DNA of 64,000 nt from an uncultured Succinivibrionaceae bacterium (GTDB taxonomy: Bacteria; Pseudomonadota; Gammaproteobacteria; Enterobacterales; Succinivibrionaceae). Within the stretch, counting starts at the first letter, position 1; every line of letters starts with the position of its first letter. The notes beneath the pieces were generated by a model. The model had not been told where the DNA came from and ran no database searches. It saw nothing but the letters and a program-made list of their open reading frames with translations. The stretch spans positions 1 through 64,000 of the forward strand of contig CALXNX010000004.1 in assembly GCA_944389865.1 (NCBI GenBank), read 5' to 3'. Below are positions 25,101 through 35,561 of the stretch, piece after piece. Both the position numbers and the translations under genes were made by a program.

Positions 25101-25516
25101 TTGATAACAAAGAAGTGATGATCCCCAATCGCCAGTTCATCACCACAGCGCTCACCAATTGGTCTCTGTCCAACACCGTCACCAAAATCGAATTTACCAT
25201 CGGCGTCAGCTATGACGCCGATCTCGACAAGGCCAAGAGCATTCTGCATGAGATTGTGCGCAGCTGCAGCTTTTTGGCCCCGGATAAGCCCTACAAAATC
25301 TTTGTCACCAGCCTTGATGCCAGCTGCGTGACCATTACCTGCGAGGTCTTTGTCAATGAGATCGGCAATCGCAAGCCCGCTTACGATTACCTCAGCACCG
25401 AGACCTTAAAGCGCTTTGCTGAAGCCGGGATTGAAGTGCCCTTCAATCAGCTGGATGTGACGATTAAGAATTTAAATAACGGCAGCACCCTTAAGGTGCC
25501 TGCGCCACAGGCTTAA
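22178..25516 (+). CDS. MscK (KefA)-type mechanosensitive channel
   Basis: 1112 residues, matching the large MscK/MscM class rather than small MscS. A signal peptide (LLVLLALFILSLGSPCAFSA) is followed by a ~450-residue periplasmic Gln/Leu-rich coiled-coil region, then about ten membrane helices. The C-terminal MscS pore and beta domain read ALSVGLGFGLQEIFANFVSG, then FERQIRVGDIVTI and DNKEVMIPNRQFITTALTNW. It would open under membrane tension to release solutes during osmotic downshock. Whether it is K+-modulated (MscK) or an MscM paralogue cannot be told, so no symbol is given. It is transcribed divergently from rpoE. Confidence 0.9.
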   Translation: MPQLLVLLALFILSLGSPCAFSADSANAQSTVISTDFGEITLPQDSEVAEAAAAVNDTGLSEADKAQKLSLYAGAPALIDKYLQLTEKEHIFAAQMKAAPTLLKSLQQELTQANQLYAQGIPDVTALDDTAIEKRLTECNQQLQLAQQDLSAANADNIALQTLPSRAQNTISANTARAAALKDELTGTTAATSPLDYRLKALEYTVCQRENALLQQQLSAQSSLQDIAAYQIRISTLKKDYYSAYIRALQGRQNQLLAADLVQQHDNSEQKPLSPALNAQLQINQQIAGYVDQQLQSNSRMEQELKEVENALTTVKQLQKSLTEQLSEVNGSLMLSRLLNRQQTEIPDVKVSFNLDELIPNLNLWLYDLRAYRDQLFDPEEYAQTLMKKDPELSAHQEDLLELVRHRRTLYDQLNQSMSAALTLAINLKLQSTELSAITNNLNAAINDRLFWLASNLPLGSDLVMSYLPLLKQQLSAALTRLQTPGYWSGTLHTLALLLLPMAAAAALAYTGRRRLNRWDDRLALRLDKPRDAYYVTPLALIISFIRAVPQIALVSAVGTLIIYFALSAQEQLLPVTQMLMLHAAVFIFFLNILKPNALFQRHFSQPAKVIARQRALLDKLWLAVIPILIIANIRELDPTSINTDIIGYTLTLCCSLYLTCAACKSLQQEFSQHELSLGAWIRGLIFIAVPLTLTIMLALGYYYTVIKLVNRIAFSLYTCLIYLIISSTVRRSLFLAENRMRRRTQTALLAAKVKRHAAKQPITEQSSQLQQRRQQLDTLRLELINTKAYKLINVFLLAGTAFILYLQWSDLAGVLNYLNTIYLWKSESIVNGVLTISSSLTAANVITAAVILAAAAVLNRNLPALLERLFLLRPNPRFKSTSYTVKILSSYIIIALGIVLAAGALGISWDKLQWLVAALSVGLGFGLQEIFANFVSGIIILFERQIRVGDIVTINDLSGTVNKIRIRATTIISFDNKEVMIPNRQFITTALTNWSLSNTVTKIEFTIGVSYDADLDKAKSILHEIVRSCSFLAPDKPYKIFVTSLDASCVTITCEVFVNEIGNRKPAYDYLSTETLKRFAEAGIEVPFNQLDVTIKNLNNGSTLKVPAPQA

Positions 25517-25579
25517 AGAGGCGGGGGAGATACAGTAGATGCCGTTTTGCGGATCAGGACGGCTGCTCCCAGCTGCAGG

Positions 25580-27880
25580 CTAATCTATTTCGATAACAGC
25601 AGCCAGATCCTGCCTTAATTCAATACTTTCATTGACATCAACTTCCTGCACCAGCCATCCGCGCGCCTGGCATGATTTAATGAACTCCGCCTGTCGATTT
25701 TCTCCCTGCAGTTCTCTGAAGGTGATGACAATGCCGCACTTGATTAGCGGACGCGGCTGATTCTTGCGATGCTTAGCAGTGATCTGCAGTCCGTAATTGC
25801 CGCTGTAAGGGTCTTTACCGCGAGATGAGGAGCTGATTTTATCTTTAAAATCCTTAACGTTGTCCCACTTGGCAAACAGAGTACGATCTTCTTCCTCCGT
25901 AAGCCTGCCTCGCTCTTTATTGTTTCCAATACTGCTTATTTGGGCTTTTCCACTTCCAACGATGCTCTTAACCCGGCCGAATTGAATTGAGAGTTCAATA
26001 TCGCTGTAATCAATCCCCTGGTCGCGATTAACCGGGGTGATATATGCCGCCGTAAGGTGGGCTGCATAATAGATTTTCTGATTACGCTGAGGAATCGGCA
26101 GATCGTAAACATAGGTGGAGTACTCAGAGATATCTACTGAGATCAGCACCTGGATCTCGTCGTCCTTACAGTGAGTGATGTCGTCAATATGCTTTGGTAC
26201 TGTGCCAAAACCCAAATATGGATCGTAGCTGCCGGTAAAATCAGCCGCCTTGTGGATCAGCAGAGCTTTGACAATTTCACGCGGCATATTTAAATAGTGA
26301 ATAAGGTAGGCTGCCTTGCGGGCAATCCACGGAGACGCAAAGGACGTTCCACATTGATCAGCAATTATGCTGCTGCCGACGCATACCTTCAGCGGCTTTT
26401 CGTGCGGTTTGACTGCAGGCTTGTCGCCTCCATAATACGCTAGATCCGGTTTGCGGAAACAGTACAGCACTGGGCCGCAGCGGCTGTAGGATGCTGCAGA
26501 GAGATCGGAAGCCGCCGCATTTACGGTCAAGGCATTAATGGAGTCAGCAGGCGCTCCAATACGGCATTGATCGGCTTTATGTCTGGACGGTTTATTGGTG
26601 CCGGCAATAATAAACAGCACGTTGTACTCGTTCTGCAGTTTATCCAGCTCAAAGGCTTCAATCGACACAAAATTTGGGGAAATCTCTTTTGGGGATCCTA
26701 AAGACAGGTTCCAGACGGTAATATCGCGATTTTCCTCCACGATGCGGCGAATGTGCTGAATAATTTCAAAGGAATTGACATGCGTTCCGTCTAAGACTCC
26801 GAAATGACGCACGCGAAAACGGCCGCATCCATCGTCAAGATCTGGATTTAGAGCAGGACCATCTACGATAATTGAGCTCACAGCAGTCCCATGCTGGGCA
26901 GTATTTTCATTAATTTCGTAAGGGGAGACCATCAAATGCGGCTCAACCCATTCAGCAAAATAACTGTTAGGGTTAAAAGGCATATCAATCACACCGATTA
27001 CAGGTTCATTCTGTGGAGCAGGGATTGAGCGCTGCTGCTCATGTAACAGTTCGTATTTAAATTCATCCAGAGACTGCAGATTATCTACTGCCATGGATAT
27101 GAGATATGGGGCAGTCTTAGTGATTTTGGCGATTTGCTCCGCTGTAAGCAGAGCCGTAGTGTCTGACAGCAGGAATTTTGGATCTACAACGATATCCAAG
27201 GCTGATAATGCGGCAGCGGCTGTTTTGCCGGTATCGTAAAAAGTGATGATGGCTTCATGCAGAGAACTGGGCAGTTCAAACTTATCTATGGCCAGACGGT
27301 TAATATTCGATGCATCTATGATGATTTGGTTGAAGGCGCTGATTGACAGCGGCCTGCCGTGCAGCGTTCTGCGCGCTGAGATCAGCGCATTAAAACGCTC
27401 AAGGTTTAGATCCTTTTTCTGATAAAAACTGTCTAAAGCCTCCGCCGTAATCACGCCTGTTGGGAAAAAAGATTCAGCTGCCGTCAGCGCCTGCTGCAGA
27501 AGCTCCGCTGCATGATTCAGCTTTTCTAATGGCAGGAAATGCGTGATCACGTGAGCAAGTACATCTTTACCATCTCGAGCAGTCTGCTCAAATTTAGCTC
27601 CACGGATACTGCTGTAGGCGCTGTTTGCATCTAAACCGAGAATACGGCTGACGCGCTGACTTTTGGGAATGACTCTATTGTAGTGTACTGAAACAAGCGC
27701 GCCGTCTATTTTATATGGAGCTTCCTGCCAAAACCTGCACAAATCGTTGAGCTCAGAGGACAGCTTCCTAAGGTGCGATATCGATACCGGATGTTTATGC
27801 GACAGCTTAGGGGCTGCGGCCGCACGCTTGTTATTCGGCGCACTGAAGAAGTTTTTCTTCAGCATCAGGATATTATTCAC
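25580..27880 (-). CDS. subtilisin-like (S8) serine protease, IetS-like anti-phage component
   Basis: 766 residues. An ~290-residue N-terminal helical region precedes an S8 catalytic domain: Asp ~299 in VIGVIDMPFN, His ~330 in TAQHGTAVSSII, the oxyanion region WNLSLGSP, and Ser ~513 in QCGTSFASPWIARKAAY. A ~230-residue beta-rich tail follows. There is no signal peptide, so it should be cytoplasmic. It is 19 bases downstream of an AAA+ ATPase. That gene pair and order match IetAS (ATPase + S8 protease), an experimentally shown anti-phage system. Start is GTG with AAAGGGGG upstream. The phage trigger and protease target are unknown. Confidence 0.82.
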   Translation of the reverse strand: MNNILMLKKNFFSAPNNKRAAAAPKLSHKHPVSISHLRKLSSELNDLCRFWQEAPYKIDGALVSVHYNRVIPKSQRVSRILGLDANSAYSSIRGAKFEQTARDGKDVLAHVITHFLPLEKLNHAAELLQQALTAAESFFPTGVITAEALDSFYQKKDLNLERFNALISARRTLHGRPLSISAFNQIIIDASNINRLAIDKFELPSSLHEAIITFYDTGKTAAAALSALDIVVDPKFLLSDTTALLTAEQIAKITKTAPYLISMAVDNLQSLDEFKYELLHEQQRSIPAPQNEPVIGVIDMPFNPNSYFAEWVEPHLMVSPYEINENTAQHGTAVSSIIVDGPALNPDLDDGCGRFRVRHFGVLDGTHVNSFEIIQHIRRIVEENRDITVWNLSLGSPKEISPNFVSIEAFELDKLQNEYNVLFIIAGTNKPSRHKADQCRIGAPADSINALTVNAAASDLSAASYSRCGPVLYCFRKPDLAYYGGDKPAVKPHEKPLKVCVGSSIIADQCGTSFASPWIARKAAYLIHYLNMPREIVKALLIHKAADFTGSYDPYLGFGTVPKHIDDITHCKDDEIQVLISVDISEYSTYVYDLPIPQRNQKIYYAAHLTAAYITPVNRDQGIDYSDIELSIQFGRVKSIVGSGKAQISSIGNNKERGRLTEEEDRTLFAKWDNVKDFKDKISSSSRGKDPYSGNYGLQITAKHRKNQPRPLIKCGIVITFRELQGENRQAEFIKSCQARGWLVQEVDVNESIELRQDLAAVIEID

Positions 27881-27899
27881 GGCCTGTACCCCCTTTCAG

Positions 27900-28964
27900 T
27901 TAATCGGTGCGCTGAGTGCTGCGGGCTATGGAGCTTTTGGAGATCCCGCTTAGGATCTCACTTTCCCGCACACTGAAGCCCTGGGCTTTGAGCTGATCCA
28001 GTGAAATTTGCGGCTTGCCGAGTAACCCCAGGTAAATACGTTTGAAATAGTCCTGCTCATGATCAGGATCGCTGAAGGCAACAGCACTCTTAAGCAGATT
28101 GTTCAGCTCACCAGGGTTAGGCAGTTTCTCTGTAATGCTCAAAATCTTTTTAAACAGTCTGGCATTGCGGTATTTGATCCTGGCCTGCTGCAGATATTTA
28201 TCGAGCCGCTGCTGAGCAATGGTTATCAGATCTTCTTTGGTATAGCGATCAAAATTCAGAACATAATCAAAGCGCCGTACCAGCGCCTGATCCATCATAT
28301 TTATCAGGTTGGTGGTGGCAATAAGCAGAATGCTGCTGTTCATTTCATCGAGGCCTTTGAGTAAAGCCGAAACCGCACGTCCCATTTCTCTTAAGTCCTG
28401 CTGACTGATGCGGTTTAATGCTAAGGCATCAATTTCGTCAAACAGGACAGCGGCTTTATCCGGGGAGCTGAGCTGATTGATTTCAGCAAAAAGAGCGGCT
28501 ATGTTCCTGTTGGTTTGGCCAAGCTTACTGTCAACGATTGTGGAAAAGTTAACGGTATACAGCCTTCTATCCAGCAGCTTGGAAAAAGCATAGGCTGCCT
28601 GGGTTTTGCCTGTTCCCGGCGCGCCGGTAAACAGCAGCTTGCTGAAGCCCATATTGCGCACTACCGCGCGGGCGGCACCTTTCAGATCATCCAGCACGCA
28701 TTCAGGCAGCAGAATATCGTCTGCAGTCTGCCTGCAGCGGGTAAGAAAATTCAGCTCCTTATCATCTTCCTCATCTTCACTGCATGGCATGGCCTGCGGG
28801 ACAAAAATACCGACCCCTGAAATTAGGTGCATGATGTATTGACCGATCCTGTGATCGCCATTTGCATCAAACTCTTTTGCTATCTCAATGGCCTGCTGGC
28901 TAAATCCGGAGTCATCTCCATTTTGATGACATTCAATCAGGCGCACAATATCCTGTTTTTTCAT
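27900..28964 (-). CDS. AAA+ ATPase, IetA-like anti-phage component
   Basis: 354 residues. A ~95-residue helical N-terminus precedes an AAA+ module: Walker A GAPGTGKT at 114-121, Walker B AVLFDEIDALAL near 172, sensor 1 LLIATTNL near 213, and arginine finger RRFD near 230. The C-terminus (LKAQGFSVRESEILSGISKS) looks like a small helical lid or HTH-like segment. It is first in a two-gene operon with the S8 protease, the IetAS arrangement; in such pairs the ATPase is thought to sense or gate the protease. An 8-bp inverted repeat lies just upstream. Confidence 0.82.
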   Translation of the reverse strand: MKKQDIVRLIECHQNGDDSGFSQQAIEIAKEFDANGDHRIGQYIMHLISGVGIFVPQAMPCSEDEEDDKELNFLTRCRQTADDILLPECVLDDLKGAARAVVRNMGFSKLLFTGAPGTGKTQAAYAFSKLLDRRLYTVNFSTIVDSKLGQTNRNIAALFAEINQLSSPDKAAVLFDEIDALALNRISQQDLREMGRAVSALLKGLDEMNSSILLIATTNLINMMDQALVRRFDYVLNFDRYTKEDLITIAQQRLDKYLQQARIKYRNARLFKKILSITEKLPNPGELNNLLKSAVAFSDPDHEQDYFKRIYLGLLGKPQISLDQLKAQGFSVRESEILSGISKSSIARSTQRTD

Positions 28965-28988
28965 GATGCACCTCAGCTAAATCCTAAG

Positions 28989-29014
28989 AAATACAGATAA
29001 TTAAACCTGTATTT
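28989..29014. repeat. inverted repeat in front of the IetA-like gene
   Basis: AAATACAG (28989-28996) and CTGTATTT (29007-29014) form a perfect 8-bp inverted repeat with a 10-base AT-rich spacer, 25-50 bases before the start of the IetA-like gene. It could be an operator or a 5' UTR hairpin. Confidence 0.45.
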
Positions 29015-29419
29015 CCATGAGCTGAAAAGGGGTGTTTTATCGTATTTATTTCATTTTTAAATATAGCATATTGGGACGATAATTAATAAAGACGGGACAC
29101 AAATATTAAAATTAGCATGCAAAACCATAAGTTCAATGAGCCCGAACGGTCTCACGGTTTGCCAGAGATGGACACTTAGCGGAGAATCCACAAACTTGAA
29201 GATCCCCGCACTATGTTTAGAGTACTAATAGATACACTCACCTTCGATTTGATATCACATGTCAGCTACAGTGCGGTTATGCAAAATTTGAGCAATATAC
29301 TAAAATCCCTAAAGGCATTAAAATGGCAAAAATAGGGTAGAATCCTAAATAATGAGTTTTTCACATCCGGCTTAGGGCCCGATTAGCGAATCACAAAAAT
29401 TTAGCAAGGATATTTTGTT
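29015..29419. other. AT-rich intergenic region between IetAS pair and glycan island
   Basis: No sure gene. On the plus strand a frame from ATG 29117 runs 20 codons to a TAG, then continues open for 51 codons (RRIHKLEDPRTMFRVLIDTL and onward) to a TAG ending at 29335. It could be a small broken gene or chance. The boundary between the balanced-GC backbone and the AT-rich island falls here. No tRNA or attachment site was recognised. Confidence 0.25.
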
Positions 29420-30445
29420 ATGACGGGTACTTCTGTACTGATGCCTCTAAATTTTTTACTGTGCATTGACCGCAACTTCGTTTTGGGAGCAGGGGCATTA
29501 ATTGCATCTTTATTTTACCATCATCCTGAGCATAAACTTAAGTTTTTCATCTTTACTTCATCAGAAAGCCAAGCAGAGATTAAAGATTTGCTGTTACCAA
29601 GATTAGCATGCCGTTTCCCTGAAGCTGCAGAATCTATAAGTTTTTTCTCATACGATAAAATAAAGTTATTTAAACGTTTGAAAGATAAAGTCAACAGCAG
29701 AATTCTTGTGCAGTGTATGCGTATTATTGCAGCAAGAGAATGCCAGATTATCGGCAGTAATCTGATCTATTTGGACGCAGATATCGTCTGCTGTGCCCCC
29801 ATTGCAGAATTAGCTGATCTGGATTTGCATGAGCACCCGATAGCTGTAACCGGATATAGCCAAGTACCTAAGACTATTACCACGGATAGCGGCAGCAAAT
29901 TTACTATTGCGCATTATTTTGTATCTGGAGTGATGGTGTTTAATCTTCCAGTTTGGAACAGCACTAATTTAGATGAGCGCTGTATTGAGTTTGTAGCTGC
30001 CGAGCATCCAGTTTTGCCTGATCAAGATGCTCTCAATGTAATTTGCGGAGATGCGGCTTATCATTTAGACGATAAATATCAGCGAGCGCCTAAAACCTTA
30101 AACGGAGCGCTGATCCTGCATTTTGCAGGCGGAAAACCTTGGGCTCCATGGCGCTATAACGAATATCCTGAAGCTACAAATCTATTCAGATTCTACTGCA
30201 AAATGTTCGAGCCTGATGTAGCTCAGTGGATATCCTTCAGAAAAGGTAAAAATACCTTGGTAAACTTTAATACATTTCACGCTCGCAAAGCTGCGAAGTG
30301 GCTCAGCAAAATATTTTTTAAACGAGGCAGATACCTAACAGCATTTTACTATTATTGGCAACATCTGCAAATTAAGATGCAGCAAAAAGGGATCATAGGA
30401 ATAATTCTGATGCGCAGTAATACCAGATCTCGTGGTAAACAATAG
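29420..30445 (+). CDS. glycosyltransferase family 8 (LPS-type)
   Basis: 341 residues with the GT8 fold: LLCIDRNFVLGAGALIASLF opening, the DxD motif in LIYLDADIVCCAPI, YFVSGVMVFNLPVW, LPDQDALNVICGD, and the His-containing ILHFAGGKPWAPW. These are hallmarks of LPS core hexosyltransferases related to WaaI/WaaJ. A C-terminal Arg/Lys-rich tail would support membrane association. It is in the AT-rich island and transcribed opposite to its neighbours. Two other GT8 genes are at 36936 and 44910. Confidence 0.88.
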   Translation: MTGTSVLMPLNFLLCIDRNFVLGAGALIASLFYHHPEHKLKFFIFTSSESQAEIKDLLLPRLACRFPEAAESISFFSYDKIKLFKRLKDKVNSRILVQCMRIIAARECQIIGSNLIYLDADIVCCAPIAELADLDLHEHPIAVTGYSQVPKTITTDSGSKFTIAHYFVSGVMVFNLPVWNSTNLDERCIEFVAAEHPVLPDQDALNVICGDAAYHLDDKYQRAPKTLNGALILHFAGGKPWAPWRYNEYPEATNLFRFYCKMFEPDVAQWISFRKGKNTLVNFNTFHARKAAKWLSKIFFKRGRYLTAFYYYWQHLQIKMQQKGIIGIILMRSNTRSRGKQ

Positions 30446-30730
30446 ATATGCTGCAAGTATCACAGCCTGTCAGGTGATCTGAAACAAAGAATCGGCGTCA
30501 ATGTTACAAATCCTGAGTCAATAAACCAGCGCATTATTTCGGCGCTCAGAATTATTATGTTAATCCGCTGTCAGCGATTATATACACAGACTTCGCAGAT
30601 AATGGCATTAATTCAGAGAGACATTCAGATAAAGCCTAATAAGGCTAAACGCCATAAATTGATACATATTTCATATATGGCTTGGAAAGATCGTCAATCG
30701 CACAATTTTATTTCTAAAAAGCTTAATCAA
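30446..30730. other. AT-rich intergenic region
   Basis: No supported gene or regulatory site. A 64-codon plus-strand frame spans much of it but has no recognisable motif and ends inside the pseudogene tail. Confidence 0.3.
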
Positions 30731-31961
30731 TTACACTCCCGAACGTTTTAAAAATGTAATAGAATCTTTAATTGCCATTAGCCTATTACTATCTACTCTA
30801 TCAAAATCAATCATCTCTGAAAATAAAGCATCATTTTTTGAATCACTAGGTATAAGAAGCCTTGACTCTAAACCAAGTTCCTTAACTAAATTTAACTGTC
30901 TAAAATCATGAATATGTCGCCGAAAGCCGATAAATCTCACATGATATATAGAAGCAAAAACCATTCCATGAAATGAATTAGTAATAAAGTATTAAGCATC
31001 TTTAAACAGAGCTATAAATTCTTTAGGGTCACATTCATCACCTATAATAATGGCATTATTTATAAAGAATTCTTTTCTTTTATTAACACAAACTATTGGC
31101 AGCTTGAAAAACTTTTTAGCTCTTTCAACATATTCGTTTATATATTGTTTATCATTTGGCTTGAGTATATATACTAAAATATATTTAGATTTTAATTTTT
31201 TTACGCTCGATGGCACTTCGGCATTTTCTGCAAGTTCATCGTAATCATTTCTATTTAATAATAAAGTAGGATCTACTGTAACTTCAATATTTTGCTTAAC
31301 TCCGCAATTCAACAAATATTCTGCACTTTCTGCTTCTCTTACAGATATATTAGAAAAATTCATAGCTGAATTTACGAAGAAGTTTGAATAATCATCCTTT
31401 GGAAATATTCCCTGACTGACTGAATAGGCAATTCTTTTTTGATTTTTATGTAAATTGAAATAGCCGAAAAATAGCCCCTCTTTTTTATTCACGTTAATTG
31501 GCATTGAATGCGGCTGACCAGAATGAACAAACCATACACAATCACTACCAACGATGATTAAATCATCTTTTAATTTGCCACGCCTAATATCTCTGACCTT
31601 AAGTGAAGATGATGTCAGATAACACTCATCGATTAGAAATTTTGTGAATTTTTTATATCTTTTCGCGTACTTTAAAATAATTTTATGTTTATAAAATTGT
31701 GAAAATATTTCATAAAGGATTCTAATTTTTCTAAACGATCTTTTTAAATCATACTTAAAACTTATATTTTTTGGATATTTTTTATTAGCAGCGTTTATTT
31801 TATCAAGAATAAATTCAGATAATTTTTTGTCTTCACCGATAAATATTATTCGTGCCGTGTGCCCCCCATTATTACAATAGTTTTTTAGGGCCCATCCTTG
31901 TAACGCGGCACCATAATTATCGTTTTCAGGCAGGGGACAACGTGAGTATAGCTATATTCAT
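30731..31961 (-). pseudogene. polysaccharide pyruvyl transferase family pseudogene (one frameshift, one nonsense)
   Basis: Reassembling the minus-strand frames gives an almost full-length polysaccharide pyruvyl transferase. It starts MNIAILTL at ATG 31961, then ENDNYGAALQGWALKNYCNN, KDDLIIVGSDCVWFVH, NISVREAESAEYLLNCGV, TVDPTLLLNR, and finally the conserved YFITNSFHGMVFASI block. Two lesions break it. First, a run of four C (plus-strand GGGG at 31933-31936) puts the ATG out of frame with the body after about nine codons; removing one base restores it. Second, an in-frame TAA at 30992-30994 comes just before YFITNSFHG. The active gene would have ketalised pyruvate onto a surface glycan. Confidence 0.82.
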
Positions 31962-32149
31962 AGTTATTATCCAAAAGGCATAGTCAGGATTTTATAAAAG
32001 CACGCATCTTCACATAGCTGATTATAACAATGATTGACGGTACAATAAGCATCTTAGAGATCATTTTATCTCTTCACGCTTCGCTTTGCGATACCGTATA
32101 TCTGATGCCTTATTTAATAGGTTCTGCGAAATGCCAAATGCTAGAATCG

Positions 32150-33346
32150 TTAAGCACCACCAACTGCCTTTGATTCTGCACAAAGCAATTCTGATAATCC
32201 ACTCAATACATCAGCTATAGGTATACTGTTCATACATACTGGTTTACTATACTTAGAACAACAAACCTCCCAGTCGTTTAAAAACCACATGCAGGGAGAA
32301 CAATCTTTGCTATGCAAATTGATATCGCAATCGTAACCCACATAACGGTAATCTGTTGGCCCCCACAATACCAGATTGCGCTTGCCTAATATATGACGCA
32401 TGTGAATCAGCCCGCTGTCGTTGTCGATATGGGCACAGGAAGCAAAAAGCAATGCTTCAGTTTCCTGAAGAGAGGTTTTACCAATAAGACATATATCAGC
32501 TTCAGGTATGATGTTACTCGATAGATCTCCCAACTGTACTATGCAGTAATGAGGAAACATTTGCTTAACAGAGGCGCAGATCTGACTGCACATAATGTCC
32601 GGTATAGTTCTCGTTAAATGCGCATTGGTGCGATATTCTGAAATTTTTCCAATTCCACTGTGAATAGTAATAAATTTACAAGACACTAAGCCAAATTTAC
32701 AAAGTGTATCTGTAATAAACGCCGGTTCGAGTTTTTTTACTATTAATGAATCTCTATTAAAACAGCAAAGACTGCAAGCCCCCAGCAGATCATAGCGGTT
32801 CCACCCCTTGAGAACGCAAAGATTCATTAACTGTCCAAAGTACTGTGCTTCATTGAATTTAATATAGTCTTTAGTAAATTTCTCAGCCACCTTGAACTTA
32901 TCTACATAATCAGGAAGGTACTTATAAAGTTTTGAATAATCACACTCTATTACAGAAATAAAGTTATCTGTATTTAATACAACATCAAATTTATATTTTT
33001 CAAAAAAACGTCGCGGTTTTACAGCATCAAACAAGGATGGATCAAAATTAATAAAGCTGTTTTGATTTATATTATCGATTAATAAAATGCATGAAATGTT
33101 TTTGTTCTTAACTTTTATTTCTTTGATAAAAGTCATAATCCATTGCATGCTGATAATTTTGTCACCAATACCGCCCCATAACAAAAAGCACACATTCAGC
33201 TTATCGATGAACAAGTATCGGGATGTTTTTCTTTTTAAATAAAACTTTAAGGACCAGAAAAGCAATTTAACTGGTATTAATGGATCGCCGTACTTTTTCA
33301 AATATGCTTTAGCGCGATTTAGAAATTCATATTTAAAGTAGGACAT
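32150..33346 (-). CDS. glycosyltransferase family 9-like (heptosyltransferase-type) protein
   Basis: 398 residues. The N-terminal Rossmann half has LNVCFLLWGGIGDKIISMQW, and the C-terminal half carries the GT9 nucleotide-sugar block HIDNDSGLIHMRHILGKRNL, continuing VLWGPTD. A Cys-rich segment (KDCSPCMWFL, EVCCSKY) near the end is also seen in some WaaF/WaaC relatives. The AT-rich composition places it in the glycan island. It is 14 bases downstream of the DUF115-like gene, so the two are likely cotranscribed. Donor and acceptor are unknown. Confidence 0.75.
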   Translation of the reverse strand: MSYFKYEFLNRAKAYLKKYGDPLIPVKLLFWSLKFYLKRKTSRYLFIDKLNVCFLLWGGIGDKIISMQWIMTFIKEIKVKNKNISCILLIDNINQNSFINFDPSLFDAVKPRRFFEKYKFDVVLNTDNFISVIECDYSKLYKYLPDYVDKFKVAEKFTKDYIKFNEAQYFGQLMNLCVLKGWNRYDLLGACSLCCFNRDSLIVKKLEPAFITDTLCKFGLVSCKFITIHSGIGKISEYRTNAHLTRTIPDIMCSQICASVKQMFPHYCIVQLGDLSSNIIPEADICLIGKTSLQETEALLFASCAHIDNDSGLIHMRHILGKRNLVLWGPTDYRYVGYDCDINLHSKDCSPCMWFLNDWEVCCSKYSKPVCMNSIPIADVLSGLSELLCAESKAVGGA

Positions 33347-33360
33347 AATATTGGATGATC

Positions 33361-34137
33361 TTATTTAGAAGGTGATGGCTGTATAGAAAACTCGTCTTCA
33401 AACATCCCTTTTAAACCAACGGGATTAATACTGACGATTTTTATAGAAGGGTTGGTAAGTTTTATAAAGTCTCTTAATTTAAGCCAGCCGTAAACTAAGC
33501 CTGTTTGTAAATTGGTTTGTCGTCCTTTGTCATAAAAATAACCGTGAGTGCAGTCACAGCCAACCAAATAAATTATTCTGGGGTTTGTGTAAAGAAGAAA
33601 CTGCATGGCACTAAATACAGTGGAACCAAAATCAGCAAAAGGCTCATGCTCTATGTCGTTAGCAAATGACATATCAGAATAGTGCTTAATATAAAAAAAG
33701 CGGATAAGCGGGTTGGTTTTATATATTTCCGGAATACGCCCCGTAGTATCAATTTTAGCTTGAATACCAAAAAATTTCTTACAGCTGTCAGGTTTATAAT
33801 CAATAAATTTTTGAAAGAAATTAAAATTATGAAAATCTCTCACAAATAAGAAGTCAAAATTTATATTTCGCAGCGAGATTGCCCCATTGATGGCAACATA
33901 TATAGCATCTGGATCCTGCTGATGATCTTTAAAAGCATCAGCAGAAGGTCCTGAAGCTATGAGATAAACTGTTTTACCGGACAGGCAATTAAAAGTGTCT
34001 TTGAAAGTGATAGGGTGTACAGCTATTGCTCGATTCCAACTAATAACGTTATTTACTGTTCTTTGCAAAACTCTGATACTAGGTTTAAAATCTGCCCAAT
34101 AATCTCGATTGATCTTTTTTATCTTAATACCCAACAT
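33361..34137 (-). CDS. DUF115-like protein (MptE-like Rossmann fold)
   Basis: 258 residues. Key segments are SGKTVYLIASGPSADAFKDH, IYVAINGAISLRNINFDFLF and RIIYLVGCDCTHGYFYDKG. The glycine-serine loop followed by 'what is shown to the observer' strands is typical of DUF115 / 6-hydroxymethylpterin pyrophosphokinase MptE-like proteins found in glycan clusters, including flagellin glycosylation. A distant resemblance to GT42 sialyltransferases is possible. No good Shine-Dalgarno site is visible before the ATG. Function unknown. Confidence 0.55.
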   Translation of the reverse strand: MLGIKIKKINRDYWADFKPSIRVLQRTVNNVISWNRAIAVHPITFKDTFNCLSGKTVYLIASGPSADAFKDHQQDPDAIYVAINGAISLRNINFDFLFVRDFHNFNFFQKFIDYKPDSCKKFFGIQAKIDTTGRIPEIYKTNPLIRFFYIKHYSDMSFANDIEHEPFADFGSTVFSAMQFLLYTNPRIIYLVGCDCTHGYFYDKGRQTNLQTGLVYGWLKLRDFIKLTNPSIKIVSINPVGLKGMFEDEFSIQPSPSK

Positions 34138-34565
34138 TCTGTAAATTCGGTGCTCTTCCTGCTTAATTGAAAATAATCCATAAAGTATGCGTATATATAT
34201 ATATATACTCTGTAATTTTTATTAGACTCTTCTGTTTTTATTAGTTCTATTCCCAAAAATTTTTTTTACTTTTGTTTTTTTCCAATGTTCCTTATCAAAA
34301 GAAATCATTGTATTTTTAGTTATAAAGTGAAACATTTATCTAACTCTATATTTTGTATTGGAAATACAATGCCTTCAGCTTCGTACATCGAAACATAATA
34401 ACTTATACAAGAAGTATAAGTTTCCGCAATCATGATCCTTAATTAATTGGAACTAGGTTGATATATTGAATGTCATGCCGCTTTGAAAGCTTACGCAGCA
34501 GATTTAGTAACCACAGAACTGAGCAAAATTTGCTTTTGTGCTTCTTCCATGACATTGCTGTCTGC
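34138..34565. other. AT-rich intergenic region upstream of DUF115-like gene
   Basis: Contains a (TA)n tract, a perfect 9-bp inverted repeat AACTTATAC (34400-34408) / GTATAAGTT (34414-34422), and T-rich runs near 34255-34290. A possible 37-codon minus-strand ORF (34433 down to 34320) starts MIAETYTSCI with AAGG five bases upstream and contains the inverted repeat. It is too short to support as a gene. Nothing else is recognised. Confidence 0.3.
34191..34208. repeat. TA dinucleotide tract
   Basis: GTATATATATATATATAC is eight TA units within an 18-base palindrome, 54 bases before the DUF115-like start codon. Tracts like this can change length by slippage. Confidence 0.6.
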
Positions 34566-34769
34566 TTACTTATGGGGGATCTCTAAGCTCGGATCGTATT
34601 CAAAAATCGCATTGAACTCGCAGACATCAAGGCATGCACCGCAGTCGGCGCATAAATCCGGATCAATACTGCTGTAGCCCTCTTCCTCATGCTCAGTAAT
34701 AGCGTCGCAGGGGCAGCAGTCCTTGCACTCACCGCAGGCGGTGCACAGATCTTTATCAATAGCAAACAT
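34566..34769 (-). CDS. 2[4Fe-4S] ferredoxin
   Basis: 67-residue bacterial-type ferredoxin with two cluster motifs: CTACGECKDCCP (CxxCxxCxxxCP) near the N-terminus and CADCGACLDVCE in the second half, where the usual Pro is Glu. It would carry electrons at low potential in the cytoplasm, in keeping with an anaerobe. ATG at 34769 is chosen because AAAGGA lies eight bases upstream; a start at 34796 adds nine residues without a better site. It is transcribed divergently from yggS. Confidence 0.9.
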   Translation of the reverse strand: MFAIDKDLCTACGECKDCCPCDAITEHEEEGYSSIDPDLCADCGACLDVCEFNAIFEYDPSLEIPHK

Positions 34770-34791
34770 AAGGATATCCTTTAAAAGCTCC

Positions 34792-34812
34792 GGCAAGATC
34801 TTGCCTTATAAT
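34792..34812 (+). promoter_or_regulatory. palindrome next to -10 box between ferredoxin and yggS
   Basis: GGCAAGATCTTGCC (34792-34805) is a perfect 14-base palindrome. A plus-strand TATAAT (34807-34812) begins one base later, 36 bases before the yggS ATG. No matching -35 was found. A dimeric regulator bound here would cover the yggS promoter and lie close to the ferredoxin start. Confidence 0.45.
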
Positions 34813-34847
34813 ATGGACGGTTAGATAATTTTAAAGCTTTTAGAAAA

Positions 34848-35561
34848 ATGGGACAAGTTTCTGCAAATCTTTCTCATATTCATCAGGAAATCTCGCAATA
34901 TTCATCCAGTTATCAGCGTCCTGCCGATGCCGTGACCTTATTGTGCGTAAGCAAAACCAAACCGCAGACTGCCATCATCGAGGCCTATCAGGACGGTGAG
35001 CGGCACTTCGGCGAATCCTACGCCCATGAAGCTGCAGAGAAAATTCAAGATCTGAAGGCGCAAGGCTATAACGACATCATCTGGCATTTCATCGGTCCTA
35101 TTCAGTCCAATAAGACCCGTCTGATTGCCGAAAACTTCGACATCGTTGAGAGCGTAGATCGCATCAAGATCGCAGAACGGCTGAATGATCAGCGCCCTGC
35201 AGGCTTCAAGCCCCTGCAGGTCTTAGTGCAGGTCAATATTTCAGATGAAGATCAGAAATCCGGCTGCTCATTTACCGAGCTGCCTGAACTTATCGGATTT
35301 ATTGAACAGAAAGAGCATCTGCAGCTGCGCGGTCTGATGGGCATCGCCAAAGAAACTGACGATCTCGCTGAAATTGAGCGCTCCTTCATGGCTTTAAAGC
35401 GCGAATTTGATAAGTACAGCGCACAGTATCCGCATTTTAATATTCTGTCCATTGGCATGACCCACGACATGGAAGCGGCGATAAAATGCGGCAGCACCGA
35501 GGTGCGCATCGGCACGGCTATTTTCGGCCCCCGCGAATACAGAAATAAGGAACAAGCATGA
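34848..35561 (+). CDS. yggS: YggS/PROSC-family PLP homeostasis protein
   Basis: Pyridoxal-phosphate-binding protein that buffers PLP and affects amino-acid and keto-acid pools. LLCVSKTKPQ holds the PLP Lys, with WHFIGPIQSNKTRLI and the closing SIGMTHDMEAAIKCGSTEVR, then IGTAIFG. Length 237 fits. It overlaps proC by four bases (ATGA), the familiar yggS-proC-yggT order. No strong Shine-Dalgarno site precedes the ATG. Confidence 0.95.
   Translation: MGQVSANLSHIHQEISQYSSSYQRPADAVTLLCVSKTKPQTAIIEAYQDGERHFGESYAHEAAEKIQDLKAQGYNDIIWHFIGPIQSNKTRLIAENFDIVESVDRIKIAERLNDQRPAGFKPLQVLVQVNISDEDQKSGCSFTELPELIGFIEQKEHLQLRGLMGIAKETDDLAEIERSFMALKREFDKYSAQYPHFNILSIGMTHDMEAAIKCGSTEVRIGTAIFGPREYRNKEQA

What the first reader, a model, noticed from the sequence alone, without database searches (positions are those of the whole stretch)
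25580..28964. IetAS-type anti-phage pair next to a glycan island
An AAA+ ATPase and an S8 protease with intact Asp/His/Ser triad form a two-gene operon, matching IetAS, a known anti-phage system of ATPase plus subtilisin-like protease. The long N-terminal (~290 residues) and C-terminal (~230 residues) regions of the protease are not explained by the S8 fold and could carry the sensor. It adjoins glycosyltransferases and a broken pyruvyl transferase, i.e. genes that often shape phage receptors.
Basis: partly seen in the sequence, partly recalled or inferred. Interest (0 to 1): 0.65.

Follow-up and report, generated by a model that had tools for sequence, protein, structure and literature searches.

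The report
IetAS toxin-antitoxin pair with conserved operator
The two genes form a divergent version of IetAS, a known bacterial pair in which an intracellular subtilisin-like protease (toxin) is kept in check by an ATPase partner, and related copies in many bacterial phyla share an apparently undescribed DNA control site that the ATPase itself probably binds.

Summary
An AAA+ gene (27900-28964, -) lies 19 nt upstream of an S8 protease gene (25580-27880, -) with an intact Asp299/His330/Ser513 triad. Both hit PADLOC IetA/IetS profiles (3e-38, 2e-73) but score far below NCBIfam's IteA/IteS cut-offs: a divergent subfamily. Relatives (36-50% identity) occur in seven phyla by record title. IetA precedes IetS in all 88 loci where both were found; the pair is absent from four congeners and sits in a variable spot, so it is not housekeeping.

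Mycoplasma homologues, with a full-length M. hyorhinis relative here, behave as toxin plus antitoxin. Phage defence by this subfamily is untested.

New here: IetA ends in a conserved helix-turn-helix, and 77 of 92 ietA upstream regions carry two GTCCC boxes 20-21 bp apart (0.02 expected), typically straddling the -35 and abutting the -10 element. The window has both. The two loci lacking any box have altered helices. IetA is therefore probably an autorepressing antitoxin. The 'unexplained' protease flanks resemble a subtilisin propeptide and a C-terminal beta-sandwich; adjacency to glycan genes looks incidental.

The parts
25580..27880 (-). ietS-like gene, 766 aa intracellular S8 (subtilisin-like) protease, predicted toxin/effector; Asp299, His330, Ser513; residues ~206-290 propeptide-like, ~571-721 beta-sandwich
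   Evidence: PADLOC IetS E=1.7e-73; Pfam S8; triad invariant in 85; AF2 pLDDT 87.4, pTM 0.90; fold matches
27900..28964 (-). ietA-like gene, 354 aa AAA+ ATPase, predicted antitoxin and regulator; N-terminal helices (3-48), AAA core, C-terminal HTH (322-351)
   Evidence: PADLOC IetA E=3.2e-38; Pfam AAA; AF2 pLDDT 84.8; AAA fold Z about 19
27900..28001 (-). C-terminal helix-turn-helix of IetA (residues ~322-354, LDQLKAQGFSVRESEILSGISKSSIARSTQRTD)
   Evidence: Pfam HTH_38 in 8 of 84 members (best 1.3e-4) and 5 of 15 (best 1.3e-5); not matched in the window's own protein; AF2 helices 322-327, 332-339, 343-351; K343, S344, R348 nearly invariant or invariant
29094..29098 (-). operator box 1 (GTCCC, in TGTGTCCCGTC)
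   Evidence: pair found in 3 of 20,000 dinucleotide shuffles of this upstream region
29073..29077 (-). operator box 2 (GTCCC, in ATCGTCCCAATATGC), 21 bp from box 1
   Evidence: pair of boxes in 77 of 92 homologous upstream regions
29060..29065 (-). putative -10 element TATATT, at the position of TATAAT in the clade consensus
   Evidence: clade consensus TTGTCCCAATATTGACAAATATGTCCCAA..TGTTATAAT; window sequence; the window's -35 is weak
28988..29015 (-). 9-bp perfect inverted repeat GAAATACAG-N10-CTGTATTTC in the predicted leader; role unknown, not shared by relatives

Best explanation
This is a divergent IetAS-type toxin-antitoxin pair. IetS is a cytosolic subtilisin-like protease that is harmful when uncontrolled; IetA is the AAA+ antitoxin that restrains it. 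IetA's C-terminal helix-turn-helix binds two GTCCC boxes, 20-21 bp (two helical turns) apart, over the operon's own promoter, and represses it. When IetA falls (loss of the element, or takeover of the cell by a phage), IetS is released and cleaves cell or phage proteins, giving element retention and/or abortive infection. Shown by sequence here: gene pair, catalytic residues, constant linkage, helix-turn-helix, box pair, sporadic distribution. Shown by others in relatives: toxicity of the protease and neutralisation by the ATPase. Inferred: IetA binding to the boxes, repression, the trigger, the protease targets, and any anti-phage effect of this subfamily.
For: Profile membership. Profile-profile alignment to canonical pairs: IetS 281-752, 99.9%, E=5.6e-36; IetA nearly end to end, including the tail, 99.8%, E=1.7e-27. 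IetA directly upstream of IetS in 88 of 88 loci where both were found, distance -29 to +6 nt (one further contig is cut before IetA). Catalytic residues invariant. Toxin-antitoxin behaviour of homologues: SGI1 sgiAT (PMC5006074); Mycoplasma 132/133, where loss of the AAA gene alone is lethal and loss of the pair is tolerated (PMC6755753), with neutralisation shown for several species and M. hyorhinis listed as a carrier (PMC8562856). The M. hyorhinis pair is a full-length relative of the window pair (L032). Operator: 77 of 92 upstream regions with two GTCCC boxes versus 0.02 expected from shuffles; 77 of 81 such pairs in 2.79 Mb of strand-bases lie upstream of ietA; the only two loci with no box have altered helices (L031 SISTLSREV; L032 degenerate). 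Own genome: seven pattern matches versus 43 for the reversed control, and the one at this locus is the only one placed in an ietA promoter.
Against: No experiment exists on this pair or a close relative (best identity 43-50%). The window IetS is the most divergent of its set (branch 2.87; 33 departures at 95%-conserved columns, against 17 for the next), so altered or decaying function is possible although the catalytic residues are intact. The window's HTH carries departures at T331 and I335 and its -35 element is weak. Only a minority of members reach Pfam's HTH model. No IetA-IetS complex or IetA-DNA complex was modelled. The window's own GTCCC pair is not rare on a whole-genome count; its meaning rests on its position and on the relatives.
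Confidence: 0.66

Rival explanations
1. A dedicated anti-phage system: IetA senses a phage product and activates IetS, which degrades phage or host proteins. Toxicity of free IetS is a by-product.
For: Family named as defence in PADLOC and NCBIfam. Neighbours of relatives include defence genes (mad2/mad3, DrmD, GajB, DRT, Fic, methyltransferases) and phage integrases; a canonical pair sits beside Shedu and the M. hyorhinis pair beside DNA-methyltransferase/type III restriction genes. Correlative link to phage resistance in Pseudomonas (PMC11878078).
Against: No phage assay for this subfamily was found. The closest tested relatives score as toxin-antitoxin. The neighbourhood survey had no control set. 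The HTH plus operator is typical of an antitoxin.
Confidence: 0.45
2. The GTCCC boxes belong to a host regulator, and the IetA tail is a protein-docking element rather than a DNA-binding domain.
For: HTH-like trihelical tails can mediate protein contacts (general knowledge). Pfam support for HTH_38 is weak in most members.
Against: The boxes occur upstream of ietA in hosts of several phyla and almost nowhere else in the same loci, so the regulator must travel with the pair, and IetA is the only candidate. The two loci without boxes are the two with changed recognition helices.
Confidence: 0.12
3. A decaying or repurposed copy: the unusually long branch means the pair no longer works as in relatives.
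For: Window IetS and IetA show the most departures from conserved columns and the longest end branch. A genome of the family keeps only the last ~56 residues of an IetS, so loss happens.
Against: Both frames are intact, all catalytic residues are kept, and both operator boxes are kept at the right spacing.
Confidence: 0.15

Closest known systems
Mycoplasma mycoides TA132/TA133 and its homologues (AAA 353 aa / S8 757 aa)
   Same: Same gene order and nearly the same sizes (354/766 aa here); the homologue in M. hyorhinis, named in PMC8562856, aligns over the full length with both window proteins (36-37% and 45-46%).
   Different: The M. hyorhinis copy lacks the GTCCC boxes and has a degenerate tail helix. 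The M. mycoides sequence itself was not compared here.
IetAS of pTiC58 and SgiAT of SGI1 (toxin-antitoxin/stability)
   Same: AAA+ antitoxin gene followed by S8 toxin gene; SGI1 genes separated by 20 bp, here 19.
   Different: Those are carried on a plasmid or an island with shown stabilisation; here the pair is on a 75-kb contig among housekeeping genes. Their sequences were not compared directly. No GTCCC pair was seen in the few canonical upstream regions examined.
IetAS/IteAS as an anti-phage system (PADLOC; NCBIfam NF042956 and NF042959)
   Same: Significant matches of both proteins; homology over the catalytic and C-terminal parts of IetS and nearly all of IetA.
   Different: 202 bits against a cut-off of 900 for IteS and 111 against 510 for IteA. 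N-terminal 280 residues align only weakly (E about 0.04).
KP-43 / SubHal subtilases and pro-subtilisin E
   Same: Catalytic fold plus C-terminal beta-sandwich (Z 27.8, 3.1 A, 361 residues) and a propeptide-like domain before it (3whi, model 206-570).
   Different: Those are secreted proteases. No secretion-signal-like N-terminus is apparent here (by eye), and the first ~200 residues are extra.

Membership tests
IetAS (PADLOC) | IetS-type S8 protease matching an IetS profile | tested here: met
   PDLC02197 E=1.7e-73 over 276-754; six further IetS profiles at E<1e-5
IetAS (PADLOC) | IetA-type AAA+ ATPase matching an IetA profile, adjacent to IetS | tested here: met
   PDLC02196 E=3.2e-38; 19-nt gap; 88 of 88 linked in relatives
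IetAS (PADLOC) | Intact protease triad and Walker motifs | tested here: met
NCBIfam IteS/IteA equivalogs | Score above the curated cut-off | tested here: not met
   202 of 900 bits and 111 of 510 bits: a divergent subfamily, not an equivalog
IetAS toxin-antitoxin | Protease toxic alone, neutralised by the AAA partner | not testable with these tools
   Shown by others for homologues only
Type II-like toxin-antitoxin module | Antitoxin binds DNA and its operon carries an operator | tested here: inconclusive
   Sequence support for HTH and operator; binding not tested
Anti-phage defence system | Protects against phage | not testable with these tools
   No phage data for this subfamily were found in the held library
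   Absent in four congeners; 10 of 57 genomes in the family with any hit, 8 of them full-length; neighbours contiguous without the pair in congeners

The most novel reading that the evidence does not exclude
IetA is a three-in-one protein: ATPase antitoxin, operon repressor and DNA-based sensor. In a large cross-phylum subfamily its helix-turn-helix reads GTCCC direct repeats over its own promoter, and the same DNA binding (or its loss when the phage degrades or titrates host DNA) is what frees the protease during infection.
Probability: 0.15. Interest if true: 0.75.

Novelty: new variant of a known kind. Interest (0 to 1): 0.5.

Why it matters
How IetAS works is described as unknown in the papers read here (PMC9958689, PMC11878078). 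The conserved operator and the helix-turn-helix give a direct, cheap test: they predict that IetA is a DNA-binding autorepressor, tie the anti-phage and toxin-antitoxin descriptions together, and give a sequence signature (TTGTCCCAA, 20-21 bp direct repeat at the promoter) for finding and delimiting this subfamily. The protease would be a toxin held by an AAA+ ring rather than one switched on by it.

Tried and rejected
Single-sequence search of genome contigs with the window IetS found nothing; the alignment-based search found 414 relatives, of which 80 were kept. Inverted repeats upstream of ietA: 31 of 95 loci have one (12 expected from simple shuffles) but no shared sequence, so the window's 9-bp inverted repeat was not taken as the operator. 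An operator-like hit in a genome without IetS (G005) lies by an unrelated gene and was rejected. Direct repeats upstream of canonical ietA were too few and too AT-rich to judge. The original IetAS papers (Yamamoto 2009; Gao 2020) were not held. The M. mycoides sequences could not be reached ('of' takes only genome handles). The fold searches say little about the first ~200 residues of IetS; that part was not folded alone. The defence-gene neighbourhood survey has no control and is only suggestive. The glycan/phage-receptor link was considered and rejected as coincidental.

Full report
Observation. The upstream gene, 27900-28964 (-), encodes a 354-aa AAA+ ATPase; the downstream gene, 25580-27880 (-), encodes a 766-aa S8 protease; 19 nt separate them, with a GGGGG-containing ribosome-binding site before the GTG. 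Pfam gives AAA (6.2e-25) and Peptidase_S8 (2.6e-28). Asp299, His330, Asn429 and Ser513 are invariant among 85 sequences and the Walker A/B, sensor-1 and arginine positions among 84.

Family. PADLOC IetS (1.7e-73) and IetA (3.2e-38) are the top matches. NCBIfam IteS and IteA also match, but at 202 and 111 bits against cut-offs of 900 and 510. Profile-profile comparison with four canonical pairs (Acidovorax, Dongshaea, an E. coli phage, a viral contig) aligns IetS 281-752 (99.9%, 5.6e-36) and nearly all of IetA (99.8%, 1.7e-27). The C-terminal part of IetS alone aligns at 1e-8 and the N-terminal part only weakly (0.04), with the [AP]K[ST]xR motif in register. So it is a distant subfamily of IetAS.

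Distribution. In the family, 10 of 57 genomes have a match (8 of them, the window's own included, over the full length), none in four congeners. In the order, 17 of 394 have any match. Plasmids of Carnobacterium and Macrococcus, the M. hyorhinis record (deposited as a plasmid, 844 kb), gut 'phage' contigs and 414 stretches in genome contigs encode relatives. In the tree, rows of the window's family fall in several separate places and Pseudomonadota rows need four changes, consistent with repeated transfer (metagenome bins and long branches limit this). In the window's genus the flanking mscK and the YggS/ProC/YggT-like genes are contiguous in G016 and G014 without the pair, and G015 has only the GT8 there. 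The GT8, the pyruvyl transferase with an in-frame stop near 30992-30994, and the GT9-like gene are thus co-residents of a variable spot.

Linkage. IetA lies directly upstream of IetS in all 88 loci where both genes were found, from 29 nt overlap to 6 nt gap; one further contig is cut before IetA.

What is known. IetAS was first reported as a toxin-antitoxin system of pTiC58 (Yamamoto 2009; cited in PMC5006074; the paper itself was not held). SgiAT of SGI1 is a functional toxin-antitoxin pair in E. coli (PMC5006074). In the minimal Mycoplasma cell, deletion of the AAA gene is lethal, deletion of the protease or of both is tolerated (PMC6755753). Toxicity and neutralisation were shown for M. mycoides, M. 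feriruminatoris, M. bovis and M. gallisepticum, and M. hyorhinis was listed as a carrier (PMC8562856). The M. hyorhinis pair aligns over its full length with the window pair. Papers on defence call the IetAS mechanism unknown (PMC9958689, PMC11878078).

Structure. AlphaFold2 with 85 sequences gives IetS pLDDT 87.4, pTM 0.90. The best solved matches are SubHal and KP-43 (Z 27.8 and 27.7, 3.1 A, about 360 residues, model 291-721), so the C-terminal region is the beta-sandwich found in those subtilases; pro-subtilisin E aligns from model residue 206, covering a propeptide-like domain. Residues 1 to about 200 remain without a tested fold. The IetA model (pLDDT 84.8, pTM 0.71) is a classic AAA ATPase (NVL, proteasome, FtsH and Vps4 relatives, Z about 18-20) with three N-terminal helices and a C-terminal trihelical unit at 322-351.

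Helix-turn-helix. The last ~35 residues of IetA read GFTVREIEILTGxSKSxVSRELKE across the subfamily. HTH_38 is hit in 5 of 15 members (best 1.3e-5) and 8 of 84 (best 1.3e-4); the window's own protein does not reach it. K343, S344 and R348 are among the most conserved residues outside the ATPase core. Canonical and other IetA proteins also end in HTH-like tails, aligned in register at E=0.0024.

Operator. While looking at inverted repeats I noticed GTCCCAA upstream of several ietA genes. Tested on all 92 upstream regions: 90 contain GTCCC (about 6 expected) and 83 contain GTCCCAA (0.3 expected). Two GTCCC boxes 18-24 bp apart occur in 77 (60 at 20 bp, 16 at 21 bp, one at 24 bp); dinucleotide shuffles give 0.02 loci for the 20-21 bp spacing. 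Of the 15 others, 12 have a second box with one or two mismatches at 20-21 bp, one has a single box, and two (L031, L032) have none. Consensus: TTGTCCCAATATTGACAAATATGTCCCAA..TGTTATAAT, i.e. -35 between the boxes, second box in the spacer, -10 just after. In whole loci, both strands, 77 of 81 such pairs lie upstream of ietA. The window has boxes at 29098-29094 and 29077-29073 (21 bp) followed by TATATT; 3 of 20,000 shuffles of this region contain such a pair. In its genome the pattern has seven matches, fewer than the reversed control (43); the other six were not examined further and are compatible with chance. The two loci without boxes are the two with changed tails: Macrococcus (SISTLSREV) and M. 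hyorhinis (degenerate). Because the boxes travel with the genes across phyla, the regulator should be encoded in the pair, and IetA is the only candidate. I found no description of this element or of an IetA HTH in the papers read, but the library is partial.

Mechanism and limits. The simplest reading is a toxin-antitoxin pair with an autorepressing AAA+ antitoxin; release of the protease would give element retention or abortive infection. The neighbourhoods of relatives contain integrases, restriction genes and known defence genes, in keeping with either role, but this survey had no control. The window copy is the most divergent of the set (33 departures from 95%-conserved columns in IetS, 18 in IetA), so its activity should be tested, not assumed.

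Noticed in passing
window 30734-31951 (-): Polysaccharide pyruvyl transferase gene interrupted by an in-frame stop near 30992-30994; the same frame stays open on both sides, and no standard start was assigned to the longer 5' part.
   Followed up: partly
window 25516-34848: Variable spot between mscK and the YggS/ProC/YggT-like genes: pair plus GT8, pyruvyl transferase and GT9-like genes here; GT8 only in G015; neither in G016 or G014. G+C drops to 33% at 30-32 kb.
   Followed up: partly
L053:9672-9839 (genome G022): Remnant of an IetS: the last 56 residues, 87% identical to the IetS of G051, with no IetA or IetS body nearby; shows loss of the pair.
   Followed up: partly
L031 (Macrococcus plasmid), 103 bp upstream of ietA: A different direct repeat (TTTTTCATTA) with the same 20-bp spacing in the copy whose recognition helix differs; could be a co-varying operator or chance in AT-rich DNA.
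   Followed up: no
L278, L281, L291, L294, L295 upstream of canonical ietA: Recurring GTTTCA/GTATCA/TGAAACGA-like words upstream of canonical ietA genes, possibly that clade's own operator.
   Followed up: no
L141, L142 (viral contigs): IetAS pairs of this subfamily lie in contigs classified as viral, and terminase genes occur among the neighbours surveyed, suggesting carriage as prophage cargo.
   Followed up: no
genome G055 contigs C25 and C41: Tandem TGTCCC-containing repeats with a 21-bp period (VNTR-like), unrelated to ietA as far as seen.
   Followed up: no
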